Positions 24,512 to 32,807 of a stretch of DNA of 64,000 nt are shown piece after piece. Within the stretch, counting starts at the first letter, position 1; every line of letters starts with the position of its first letter. The DNA comes from an uncultured Chlorobiaceae bacterium (GTDB taxonomy: Bacteria > Bacteroidota > Chlorobiia > Chlorobiales > Chlorobiaceae), in NCBI GenBank assembly GCA_903940125.1, contig CAJAJL010000100.1, forward strand, positions 1-64,000, given 5' to 3'. Made by a program: the position numbers and the translations under genes. The notes under the pieces are model-generated. The model made no database searches, was not told where the DNA came from, and saw nothing but the letters and a program-made list of their open reading frames with translations.

Positions 24512-25525
24512 ATGCCGGTCAGTGGAAAACAGAGTATTGTCAGGATTCAAGAGATAATTGCAGTGGGTTTACTGCTTGCTCATCTTCTTCTTTTATCTGC
24601 ATGTACACGTAATAATCTCTCTTTCCCTGCAGATACGCCTCGTTTGATTGCTCAAACGGAGAACAGAAGTATGACGTATAACAAATTGTCTGCCGACGAA
24701 GAGCGGGTGATTGTCCACAAAGGAACTGAACAGCCTTTCACTGGTAAATACTATTTGAATAAGGAGAAGGGGAGCTATCTCTGCAGGCGTTGTGATGCAC
24801 CTCTTTTTCGTTCATCCGCTAAGTTTGAGTCGGGCACTGGCTGGCCAAGCTTTGATGATGCCATTGAAGGTGCTGTCCAGCAGATTCCTGACGCCGATGG
24901 CCGGCGTACTGAAATAGTATGCGCACAGTGCGGTGCACATCTTGGCCATGTTTTTTTCAGTGAAGGTTTTACATCTAAAAATGTTCGTCATTGTGTTAAC
25001 TCTGTTTCCCTGAATTTTCTGCCGGAAGCAGTTGCTGCAACACAAACAGAAAAGGCAGTTTTTGCTGGAGGATGCTTTTGGGGCGTTGAGTACCATTTCA
25101 GTAAACTAAAGGGAGTGCTCTCCGTCAAATCCGGTTATACGGGCGGAGTGACCGATCATCCATCGTACAAACAGGTTTGTACCGGCACAACAGGACATGC
25201 TGAAGCAATCGAGGTTGTGTTTGATCCGTCACTGGTCAGCTATGAAACTCTTGCAAAACTCTTTTTCGAAATTCACGATCCGACCCAGTTGAATCGTCAG
25301 GGTCCGGATATCGGAACACAATACCGGTCTGCAGTTTTTTACACAAATGAAGAGCAGAAGAAGTCGGCTGAAAAACTTATTGCAGTGTTAAAGACTAAAG
25401 GATTCAATGTTGTAACGAGCGTCGAAAAAGCCGCAACATTCTGGGATGCTGAGGCTTACCATCAGGATTATTACCAGAAGAACGGTCATCAACCCTACTG
25501 CCACATCTATCAGAAAAGGTTTTAG
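24512..25525 (+). CDS. msrBA: MsrB-MsrA fusion methionine sulfoxide reductase, lipoprotein-like N-terminus
   Basis: The 337-residue protein reduces both R- and S-methionine sulfoxide. An N-terminal signal with a lipobox (LLLLSACT) is followed by MsrB (about 55-170) with two zinc CxxC pairs (CRRC, CAQC) and the catalytic RHCVNSVS, then MsrA (about 185-335) with GGCFWGVEYHF and the closing YHQDYYQKN. The signal places repair in the periplasm or at the membrane. The order B-A is one of the known fusion orders. A nonamer repeat cluster follows 16 bases after the stop. Confidence 0.93.
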   Translation: MPVSGKQSIVRIQEIIAVGLLLAHLLLLSACTRNNLSFPADTPRLIAQTENRSMTYNKLSADEERVIVHKGTEQPFTGKYYLNKEKGSYLCRRCDAPLFRSSAKFESGTGWPSFDDAIEGAVQQIPDADGRRTEIVCAQCGAHLGHVFFSEGFTSKNVRHCVNSVSLNFLPEAVAATQTEKAVFAGGCFWGVEYHFSKLKGVLSVKSGYTGGVTDHPSYKQVCTGTTGHAEAIEVVFDPSLVSYETLAKLFFEIHDPTQLNRQGPDIGTQYRSAVFYTNEEQKKSAEKLIAVLKTKGFNVVTSVEKAATFWDAEAYHQDYYQKNGHQPYCHIYQKRF

Positions 25526-29491: not shown

Positions 29492-30892
29492 ATGACAATG
29501 GATGCCGGACCGGTTTCGGTCAGTACAAAAAAGAACAGGTGTAGATTTATTGTTCTTATCTGCAGTGCGGTATTGCTTATCGTTTTATCAGCTCAGGATA
29601 GTTTTGCCTTGCCGGTGTTCGCACGAAAATACCATACTGCGTGTTCAACCTGCCATATCGCGTTTCCTGCCCGGAATGGTTTTGGTGAAGCCTTCCGCAA
29701 TAATGGATACCGCTTCCCTGATGGCACCGATGAGGATATGGTGAAGGAAGAGCCCATCAAGCTTGGTTCAGAAGCCTATAAGGATGTTTTTCCTGATGCG
29801 ATCTGGCCATCCGATCTGCCCAATATGCCCTCTCTTGGATTCCTTGCAAAAAGTGGTGCTTCGATGACCAGAAACTCGGCTACTGGAAAGTACAGGGACG
29901 TAGGTGTTGACGAGGAACTGAATATTTTCTTTTCCGGTACCATAACCAAACAATTGAGTTATATCGGCGATCTGAATATTGATGGCGGAAACTATGGCCC
30001 AGATGCAGCAACCACAACATTGGGACGTCTGCAGTTCGTCTGGACTTTCAAGCCGGGGTTAAGTGTTGCATGGGGCACGGTCGGTTTTCCAGAACAGTTT
30101 GACTTGATTTCGACGCGTGCAGGTACTGACAAGGATGGCTATGCCGCAAGTCTGCCGAATCCAAACAGGGGTATTGAATTGAGAATAGCTGGCAATACCG
30201 GTGCCTGTGGCGGATATTCAATTCTAGCAGGAATTGGTCGGAATTCTGAAGTCGGTAATACTGATAGTAATGGCAATGATCTTGCGAATGCCAATATTGC
30301 CGATACAAGATTTGTCAGGGCAACCTGGAAGATCGGCGGAAATGGATTGTTGAGCGGTGTAGGCGGTTCGTATGGAGTTCAGGCTATAGGAATGGATGAC
30401 TCCATAACTTTTGGTGTCGATTATGTCAACTCCGGTCAAGGAGCAAACACTGGCTCAGAAGATTGGATTGATGGTCTTACCAAAACGGCATACTCTGGAG
30501 ACGTAAGGATCAATTACGGTCCGGTGCGTGCTGTAGCCCAGTATGCCCGTTTTAATGAGGTGCTTAATGCATTGCCGTTGCCTGGAGCCGCTGAGGATGG
30601 TTCTGATATCGCCAGAGGTGGTTTTAATTATGGTAAACGAACAGCACTCTCTCTTGAGGCGGATTACTGGATTTATCCATGGCTTTTTGGACTTGTTCGT
30701 TACGAGCATCTGCAGGATAATCTCAACGGCAGGATCAATAAGGTTATTCCCGGTATTGGTGTCCTGCTCAGACCAAATGTCAAGTTTGGGGTAGAGTATG
30801 TTTCTGTTTCGAAAGATGCTGCAGCAGAGGCCTCTGTGGCAGGCCAGGCGGCAGAAAACTCAATAAATCTCTACACTCAGGTAGGTTTTTAA
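29492..30892 (+). CDS. Outer-membrane cytochrome-porin, Cyc2-like
   Basis: The 466-residue protein has a signal peptide ending near SFA (residue 39), then a single c-type heme site CSTCH (51-55) within ALPVFARKYHTACSTCH and FGEAFRNNGYRFP, followed by about 390 residues of alternating, Gly/Asn-rich beta-barrel sequence ending in a terminal Phe. This is the plan of Cyc2, the fused cytochrome-porin that oxidises Fe(II) at the outer membrane and is found in photoferrotrophic Chlorobium. Similar cytochrome-porins with other substrates exist, so iron oxidation is inferred. GGAGAG precedes ATG 29492; a terminator follows at 30936. Confidence 0.75.
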   Translation: MTMDAGPVSVSTKKNRCRFIVLICSAVLLIVLSAQDSFALPVFARKYHTACSTCHIAFPARNGFGEAFRNNGYRFPDGTDEDMVKEEPIKLGSEAYKDVFPDAIWPSDLPNMPSLGFLAKSGASMTRNSATGKYRDVGVDEELNIFFSGTITKQLSYIGDLNIDGGNYGPDAATTTLGRLQFVWTFKPGLSVAWGTVGFPEQFDLISTRAGTDKDGYAASLPNPNRGIELRIAGNTGACGGYSILAGIGRNSEVGNTDSNGNDLANANIADTRFVRATWKIGGNGLLSGVGGSYGVQAIGMDDSITFGVDYVNSGQGANTGSEDWIDGLTKTAYSGDVRINYGPVRAVAQYARFNEVLNALPLPGAAEDGSDIARGGFNYGKRTALSLEADYWIYPWLFGLVRYEHLQDNLNGRINKVIPGIGVLLRPNVKFGVEYVSVSKDAAAEASVAGQAAENSINLYTQVGF

Positions 30893-30935: not shown

Positions 30936-30989
30936 GCGTGTTTTCAATACCGGAGTATCCTCCGGCATTGGGGGCACGCTTTTTTTTTG
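30936..30989 (+). terminator. Rho-independent terminator of the cytochrome-porin gene
   Basis: GCGTG (30936-30940) pairs with CACGC (30975-30979), enclosing a second hairpin CCGGAG/CTCCGG (30950-30965), and is followed by ten Ts. Confidence 0.85.
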
Positions 30990-31694: not shown

Positions 31695-32807
31695 ATGCAA
31701 TACATTCCTCTTATTCCCCTCTCGGAGCTTCCGGAAAACACCCATAAATCAGTAAAAAACGGCAACAGAACGATTGCGCTGTTTCATTACGAAGGAATTA
31801 TATCTGCGCTTGACCACGCCTGTATCCATAAAGGGGGAGATCTGGGGGAGGGTTTCATCCAGATACTTGATGACCGGGAGCATTATGTTGCCTGTCCCTG
31901 GCATGGATGGCAGTACAACCTGAAAACCGGTAAAGCTCCTCATGATTACAAGGATCGGCAGGCACTCTACGATGTCATTCTGCAGAACGGCATGATTTGC
32001 GTGTCGGAAAAACCGGTGACAGATGCTTACAGGGCCGAACACGAATCTGATCCCCTGGCCGACTTGAGGAGCCTAAACTATCAAACTACAGCTACCTCTC
32101 TCAATGTCCTTGGAATTTCTACTACAAATATGAATTCCGATCTTCCGAGGCCTTCAACCTCAGAGACAGCATTGCAGAACGCTCTTGATATAGCGGTTTC
32201 AAAATTTGGTGCTCAAACGAAAATGATCAAACTCCGTGAGTTGAACTTTCGTCATTGTGAAGGCTACTACAGTCGTCATGAGAAAGCTTGCACATGGCCG
32301 TGTTCCATTTCAGAAATGGATGCAAATGATGGTATGAATGAAATTTACCGTTCCATTGTATTGTGGGCGGACGCCGTTATCCTTGCAACTCCAATCAGAT
32401 GGGGGAATGCATCGTCGCTTTATTACAAGATGGCAGAACGGCTCAATACTGTCCAGAACCAGATTACTATAAACGATAAGGTGCTTATTAAAAACAAAGT
32501 GGTATCGTTTATCATAACCGGTGGCCAGGACAATGTTCAGGGTGTTGCAGGACAGCTTAACTCATTTTTTGCTGATCTTGGTTTTACCTTTCCACCCTTC
32601 AACTATCTCGGCTGGAGCAGAGGCTGGATAGCCGAAGATATGGAAAACAATTACACCCGTTTTTTTAAGAACCGCTATGTTAAGCGATCAGTTATTGATC
32701 TGGTCACCAATACGGTCAAACTGGTCCAGCAAATCAAGCAGATGGATGTCTCTCATCTTCAAGCCCCGAAGCCGAAAATATCTGAGGCAGGAAGTCTTTC
32801 TGAATAG
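31695..32807 (+). CDS. Rieske [2Fe-2S] domain fused to NADPH-dependent FMN reductase (flavodoxin fold)
   Basis: The 370-residue protein joins two redox modules. Residues about 1-105 form a Rieske ferredoxin with ligands Cys43, His45, Cys67 and His70 (CIHKGG and CPWHGWQY). Residues about 133-330 form a flavodoxin-like domain of the NAD(P)H-dependent FMN reductase/WrbA kind, with LGISTTN near the phosphate loop and ATPIRWGNASSLYYKM in the flavin/ligand region. No signal peptide is present, so it is cytoplasmic. The fusion suggests electron transfer between flavin and the cluster. Substrate and partner are unknown. Confidence 0.85.
   Translation: MQYIPLIPLSELPENTHKSVKNGNRTIALFHYEGIISALDHACIHKGGDLGEGFIQILDDREHYVACPWHGWQYNLKTGKAPHDYKDRQALYDVILQNGMICVSEKPVTDAYRAEHESDPLADLRSLNYQTTATSLNVLGISTTNMNSDLPRPSTSETALQNALDIAVSKFGAQTKMIKLRELNFRHCEGYYSRHEKACTWPCSISEMDANDGMNEIYRSIVLWADAVILATPIRWGNASSLYYKMAERLNTVQNQITINDKVLIKNKVVSFIITGGQDNVQGVAGQLNSFFADLGFTFPPFNYLGWSRGWIAEDMENNYTRFFKNRYVKRSVIDLVTNTVKLVQQIKQMDVSHLQAPKPKISEAGSLSE

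What the first reader, a model, noticed from the sequence alone, without database searches (positions are those of the whole stretch)
29492..30892. Cyc2-like outer-membrane cytochrome-porin in a green sulfur bacterium
Seen: signal peptide, one CSTCH heme site in the context ALPVFARKYHTACSTCH ... FGEAFRNNGYRFP, then a beta-barrel-like C-terminus ending in Phe. Known: Cyc2 fused cytochrome-porins oxidise Fe(II) outside the cell and are found in photoferrotrophic Chlorobium. Inferred: this strain may take electrons from Fe(II) or another extracellular donor. The protein is not an obvious Cyc2 ortholog, so it may be a new branch.
Basis: partly seen in the sequence, partly recalled or inferred. Interest (0 to 1): 0.8.

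Follow-up and report, generated by a model that had tools for sequence, protein, structure and literature searches.

The report
Cyc2-like heme porin, non-canonical branch
This gene encodes an outer-membrane barrel with one heme, a relative of the iron-oxidising protein Cyc2 but on a separate branch that in many bacteria sits beside a blue-copper protein, so this lake green sulfur bacterium may exchange electrons with something outside the cell, though iron as the donor is not shown.

Summary
Window 29492-30892 (+) encodes a 466-aa protein under purifying selection: signal peptide, one CSTCH heme site and a predicted 16-stranded porin barrel ending in Phe. It carries the published Cyc2 signature AXPXFAR[Q/K][T/Y] (ALPVFARKY), but PXL is replaced by P-x-R.

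The Cyc2 interpretation is only partly supported. Chlorobia hold four porin-cytochrome families. Family D (FARQT, PXL) is canonical Cyc2 and is absent from this genome. The window protein is family A (28 of 98 Chlorobia genomes). It belongs with paralogs B and C to a FARKY superfamily spread over Ignavibacteria, Calditrichota, Acidobacteria and others (probably FeGenie 'cluster 3'), and the AU test rejects grouping A with D (p 9e-7). Trout Bog Chlorobium MAGs carry A, B and D, probably the 'three Cyc2 homologs' already reported there.

In other phyla the FARKY porin is followed directly by a type-1 copper cupredoxin (18 of 23 loci), often with Rieske/cytochrome b genes. In this genome paralog B lies in such an operon, and family A is directly followed by the cupredoxin in three relatives. 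The best reading is an outer-membrane one-heme conduit trading electrons with a periplasmic cupredoxin. Donor and electron direction are unproven.

The parts
29492..30892 (+). Family A FARKY-type cytochrome-porin gene, 466 aa
   Evidence: ORF and translation; 27 further intact Chlorobiaceae homologs; dN/dS 0.07-0.13
29492..29608 (+). Predicted signal peptide, residues 1-39, likely cut at SFA|LP
   Evidence: read from sequence: basic n-region, hydrophobic h-region, small residues at the cut; helix 14-33 in the model
29606..29632 (+). Cyc2 signature ALPVFARKY, residues 39-47 (AXPXFAR[Q/K][T/Y])
   Evidence: sequence; signature defined in PMC8406198; P41, R45, K46 and Y47 invariant in the FARKY set
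29642..29656 (+). Single heme c attachment site CSTCH, residues 51-55
   Evidence: sequence; both Cys and the His invariant in 52 homologs
29666..29674 (+). P-A-R, residues 59-61, in place of the PXL of canonical Cyc2
   Evidence: P.R in all A, B and C rows scored; P.L in all D and most non-Chlorobia FARKY rows
29681..29719 (+). Conserved FGEAFRNNGYRFP, residues 64-76
   Evidence: nearly invariant
29720..29830 (+). Conserved linker or plug segment, residues 77-113 (DEDMVKEEPIKLG..YK..FP.AIWPSD.PNMP), longer than in canonical Cyc2
   Evidence: alignment A1; aligned to gaps in family D
29831..30889 (+). Porin barrel, 16 predicted strands, residues 114-466, C-terminal Phe
   Evidence: AlphaFold2; Foldseek to OmpF/OmpC/OmpU
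30959..30974 (+). Terminator-like hairpin with T tract downstream of the gene
   Evidence: consensus scan; weak, but fits a single-gene transcript

Best explanation
The gene encodes an outer-membrane fused monoheme cytochrome c and 16-stranded porin of the wide Cyc2 superfamily, but of its FARKY branch, not the FARQT branch that holds the Cyc2 of photoferrotrophic Chlorobium. Most likely mechanism: the heme-bearing N-terminal domain plugs the periplasmic mouth of the barrel. A small redox-active outside partner (Fe2+, reduced humic or other shuttle, possibly a sulfur species) enters the pore and gives up an electron to the heme. The electron passes to a periplasmic cupredoxin with a type-1 copper site, and from there to cytochrome c and the photosynthetic or cytochrome bc-type chain. 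Shown here: anatomy, fold prediction, phylogeny, neighbourhood. Inferred: electron transfer, cupredoxin as partner of family A in this strain (where the gene stands alone), direction inward, and the outside donor.
For: Motif and heme site. 16-strand barrel. Homology to canonical Cyc2 over about 360 columns, E 3e-17. A is its own clade sister to B and C, inside a FARKY superfamily separated from FARQT sequences with support 100; AU test rejects A with D at p 9e-7. Cupredoxin with C-x-x-H-x-x-M directly downstream of the porin in 18 of 23 non-Chlorobia loci. Own paralog B lies in an operon porin-Rieske-ferredoxin-cyt b-cyt b-octaheme-cyt c-cupredoxin, separate from a second cytochrome b gene elsewhere in the genome. 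Family A is directly followed by the cupredoxin in G036, G040 and G043, and by a broken copy in G077. Three cupredoxin copies in the window's genome. Cupredoxin presence tracks families A/B in 86 Chlorobiaceae genomes (34 both, 3 A/B only, 2 cupredoxin only, 47 neither) and not D; 0 of 12 D-only genomes have it.
Against: In the window and in most relatives family A is not in an operon with any redox gene. Much of the cupredoxin co-occurrence comes from paralog B's operon and was not corrected for shared ancestry; three A carriers (G008, G009, G055) have no cupredoxin found. The cytochrome domain is modelled with low confidence, so its plug position is not established. The genome has dsrA, so it need not depend on an extracellular donor. 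No member of the FARKY branch examined here has known biochemistry.
Confidence: 0.6

Rival explanations
1. It is a working Fe(II) oxidase that makes this strain a photoferrotroph: a functional equivalent of Cyc2 despite its different branch.
For: Signature motif and architecture of Cyc2; one cluster-3 homolog, Cyt572, oxidises Fe(II) according to PMC7029218; Trout Bog GSB-A and GSB-B, which carry A, B and D, are inferred to use extracellular donors.
Against: Canonical family D is absent from this genome. Presence of A and D is independent across 98 genomes (8 both, 20 A only, 14 D only; Fisher p 0.42). PXL is lost. dsrA is present. FARKY relatives occur in lineages not known as iron oxidisers.
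Confidence: 0.25
2. The conduit runs outward: quinol electrons pass through a bc-type complex and cupredoxin to the porin-cytochrome and on to an outside acceptor such as Fe(III) or humics, used for example in the dark.
For: The FARKY operon in other phyla carries its own Rieske/cytochrome b and a FAD/Fe-S oxidoreductase; Ignavibacteriales in PMC8478452 carry both iron oxidation and reduction genes and are described there as heterotrophs.
Against: Green sulfur bacteria need electron donors for CO2 fixation; known Cyc2 proteins work inward; no direct evidence of direction either way.
Confidence: 0.2
3. The heme serves as a redox sensor or gate of an otherwise ordinary substrate porin, with no role in electron supply.
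For: Lone gene without partners in most genomes; barrel resembles general diffusion porins.
Against: Conserved cupredoxin and bc-type neighbours of the wider family and of one A subclade.
Confidence: 0.1

Closest known systems
Cyc2 cluster 1 (Mariprofundus ferrooxydans PV-1 Cyc2; Chlorobium ferrooxidans-type Cyc2, here family D)
   Same: Signal peptide, single heme c with the AXPXFAR[Q/K][T/Y] signature, 16-strand porin, about 420-470 aa; profile homology E 3e-17.
   Different: FARKY not FARQT; P-x-R not PXL; extra conserved linker; separate clade, AU p 9e-7 against grouping with D. The partner next to D is a small c-type cytochrome, whereas the FARKY partner is a cupredoxin.
Cyc2 cluster 3 homologs of FeGenie / McAllister 2020 (includes Leptospirillum Cyt572)
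   Same: Probably where FARKY proteins are filed: the DeMMO study reports cluster 3 genes dominating sites where Ignavibacteriales carry iron-oxidation genes, and the DeMMO6 Ignavibacteriales locus L134 is of FARKY type.
   Different: Family A is a Chlorobia-specific subclade with P-x-R; no cluster 3 HMM or Cyt572 sequence was available to test the assignment.
Paralog B in the same genome (C36, 415 aa)
   Same: Same FARKY/P-x-R type, full-length homology, 37% identity over residues 14-356.
   Different: B sits in a Rieske/cytochrome b/octaheme/cytochrome c/cupredoxin operon; A stands alone here.
MtrAB / PioAB / MtoAB porin-multiheme complexes
   Same: Outer-membrane electron conduit made of a barrel and heme.
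   Different: One heme in the same polypeptide and 16 strands, instead of a 26-strand barrel around a separate decaheme protein.

Membership tests
Cyc2 family (definition of PMC8406198) | Signal peptide | tested here: met
   Read from sequence, residues 1-39; no SignalP available
Cyc2 family (definition of PMC8406198) | Single CXXCH | tested here: met
   CSTCH 51-55, only one; invariant in 52 homologs
Cyc2 family (definition of PMC8406198) | AXPXFAR[Q/K][T/Y] upstream of CXXCH | tested here: met
   ALPVFARKY; definition
Cyc2 family (definition of PMC8406198) | PXL motif 4 aa downstream of CXXCH | tested here: not met
   PAR at that position; P-x-R in all A, B and C rows scored, P-x-L in family D
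Cyc2 family (definition of PMC8406198) | At least 365 aa with 16-strand porin barrel | tested here: met
   466 aa; 16 strands, pTM 0.78; Foldseek to 16-strand porins
Cyc2 family (definition of PMC8406198) | Sequence homology to a characterised Cyc2 | tested here: inconclusive
   Profile homology to Chlorobium family D, E 3e-17; no biochemically characterised Cyc2 sequence was at hand
Cyc2 family (definition of PMC8406198) | Fe(II) oxidation with suitable redox potential | not testable with these tools
   needs protein biochemistry
Cyc2 cluster 1 (neutrophilic iron oxidisers, photoferrotrophic Chlorobium) | Placement in the clade of Chlorobium FARQT Cyc2 | tested here: not met
   A + D as one clade rejected, AU p 8.8e-7; bipartition support 100. 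That family D is cluster 1 rests on the literature
Cyc2 cluster 3 | Best match to the cluster 3 HMM, or grouping with Cyt572 | not testable with these tools
   FeGenie HMMs and Cyt572 not held; indirect support from PMC8478452
MtrAB/PioAB porin-multiheme conduit | Separate multiheme cytochrome inserted in a barrel of about 26 strands | tested here: not met
   one heme site, 16 strands, no multiheme neighbour of the window gene

The most novel reading that the evidence does not exclude
Lake green sulfur bacteria carry a second kind of outer-membrane electron conduit, independent of canonical Cyc2: FARKY porin-cytochromes (A and B) feeding a dedicated cupredoxin and an additional cytochrome bc-type complex. 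It was inherited from a module shared with Ignavibacteria, Calditrichota and Gemmatimonadales, and lets strains without cluster 1 Cyc2 take electrons from reduced humics, Fe(II) or neighbouring cells.
Probability: 0.35. Interest if true: 0.7.

Novelty: new variant of a known kind. Interest (0 to 1): 0.45.

Why it matters
Cyc2 presence is used as a genomic marker of iron oxidation. This case shows that a Cyc2-signature protein in a Chlorobium genome can belong to a deep separate branch with another motif (P-x-R), another distribution and another partner (cupredoxin and bc-type complex instead of a small c-type cytochrome). Calling every such homolog Cyc2 would overstate photoferrotrophy. It also gives a concrete, testable electron route for humic-lake green sulfur bacteria suspected of extracellular electron uptake without canonical Cyc2.

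Tried and rejected
Pfam, NCBIfam and PDB sequence searches with the protein and with its family alignment gave nothing useful. Search for a conserved operon partner of family A in 20 relatives: neighbours differ between lineages, so local neighbours in the window (UbiA-type prenyltransferase, LysE transporter, Rieske/FMN-reductase fusion) were rejected as partners. Canonical Cyc2 (family D) in the window's own genome: absent, only N-terminal matches to the A and B porins. Co-occurrence of A with D: none. Plasmid collection: no relative of A; only short matches to proteobacterial Cyc2-like proteins for D, used as outgroup. The promoter scan was not above chance. The papers reporting Trout Bog transcription (10.1111/1462-2920.16314) and the Boreal Shield Chlorobia (10.1038/s41396-020-0725-0) are not held, so which homolog is highly transcribed is unknown here.

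Full report
Observation. The ORF at 29492-30892 (+) encodes 466 aa. It is a real, selected gene: intact homologs at 51-89% identity in 27 further Chlorobiaceae genomes and dN/dS 0.07-0.13.

Structure. AlphaFold2 with 32 and then 52 homologs gave 16 strands from about residue 114 to the end (pTM 0.70 and 0.78). Foldseek finds 16-stranded general porins (OmpF, OmpC, OmpU). The heme domain (residues 35-112) is modelled with low to moderate confidence, so a plug position follows from the published Cyc2 model (PMC8406198), not from this model.

Four families in Chlorobia. Searching 98 Chlorobia genomes with the window protein and with a canonical Chlorobium Cyc2, plus all-against-all BLAST, gives A (window type, 28 genomes), B, C and D. 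D reads ATPVFARQT..C..CH...P.L and is present in 22 genomes. It matches the cluster 1 Cyc2 that the literature places in Chlorobium, including C. phaeovibrioides and P. luteolum; one D genome, G025, is a single contig of 2,364,842 bases, which I recall as the size of the P. luteolum DSM 273 chromosome. The window's genome (98.6% complete) has A, B and C but no D.

Phylogeny. In a 104-row tree A is one clade (99), A+B+C join, and all FARKY proteins are split from FARQT proteins with support 100. A careful 43-row tree agrees, and the AU test rejects A with D (p 8.8e-7). Long branches separate the FARQT groups from the rest, so distances there are uncertain. Profile comparison still links FARKY and FARQT families over 360 columns (E 3e-17). 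Chlorobia FARKY proteins have P-x-R where Cyc2 has PXL; most other FARKY proteins keep P-x-L.

Link to published work. Each holds A, B and D. PMC12285243 says both Trout Bog Chlorobium populations encode three Cyc2 homologs, one transcribed far more than other donor oxidoreductases. These are probably A, B and D, so proteins of this family have already been counted as Cyc2 homologs; which one is highly transcribed could not be learned here. PMC8478452 assigns cluster 3 to most Cyc2 genes at sites where Ignavibacteriales carry iron genes, so FARKY is probably cluster 3; this was not tested directly. PMC8406198 itself calls cluster 3 function the most uncertain.

Neighbourhood. Around A in the window there is no redox partner, and flanks differ between lineages. 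In non-Chlorobia loci the FARKY porin is directly followed by a cupredoxin of about 200 aa with C-x-x-H-x-x-M in 18 of 23 cases, often with a histidine kinase/NtrC pair, a FAD/Fe-S oxidoreductase, Rieske and cytochrome b genes. The own paralog B lies in an operon porin-Rieske-ferredoxin-cyt b-cyt b-octaheme-cyt c-cupredoxin with ResB/CcsA-like genes upstream; the Pfam copper-binding match of its cupredoxin is E 6.6e-7. A second cytochrome b gene lies on contig C121. The genome holds three such cupredoxins. In G036, G040 and G043 the cupredoxin follows A directly (gaps 82-248 bases), and a broken copy does so in G077. Cupredoxin and A/B co-occur (34/3/2/47, p 4e-18), partly because the cupredoxin belongs to the B operon and without correction for ancestry; it does not track D, and 0 of 12 D-only genomes have it.

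Mechanism. The most likely reading is an outer-membrane one-heme conduit that passes electrons to a periplasmic cupredoxin. Inward flow from a small extracellular donor fits a phototroph that needs reductant, but outward flow is not excluded. Fe(II) as the donor is possible but not indicated more than reduced humics: the genome lacks canonical Cyc2 and has dsrA.

Verdict. Observation confirmed. Interpretation partly supported: Cyc2-like in build, not the photoferrotroph Cyc2, and a distinct branch with a different partner. Moderate interest.

Noticed in passing
L005 8017-15950 (own contig C36): Paralog B heads an operon with Rieske, ferredoxin, two cytochrome b parts, an 873-aa octaheme protein, cytochrome c and a cupredoxin: an extra cytochrome bc-type complex next to a porin-cytochrome, besides another cytochrome b gene on contig C121.
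   Followed up: partly
L126, L129, L130, L133, L134, L143, L153, L154, L169: In Ignavibacteria, Calditrichota and Gemmatimonadales MAGs the FARKY porin-cytochrome gene is followed by a cupredoxin and, in most of these loci, flanked by a histidine kinase/NtrC regulator pair and/or a FAD/Fe-S oxidoreductase, Rieske and cytochrome b.
   Followed up: partly
L006 7476-9487 (own contig C46): Third paralog C (IPSWGRKY...CLMCH) beside a small divergent c-type cytochrome similar to the one beside canonical Cyc2 in other strains.
   Followed up: partly
L038 3089-4981 and several C loci (L067, L068, L073): A thioredoxin-like protein and a DUF3570 protein follow canonical Cyc2 (D) and also some C genes.
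   Followed up: no
window 31695-32807: A Rieske-type ferredoxin domain fused to an NADPH-dependent FMN reductase-like domain, 370 aa; function unclear.
   Followed up: no
window 24512-25525: Fused methionine sulfoxide reductases (SelR plus PMSR domains) in one polypeptide; looks ordinary.
   Followed up: no
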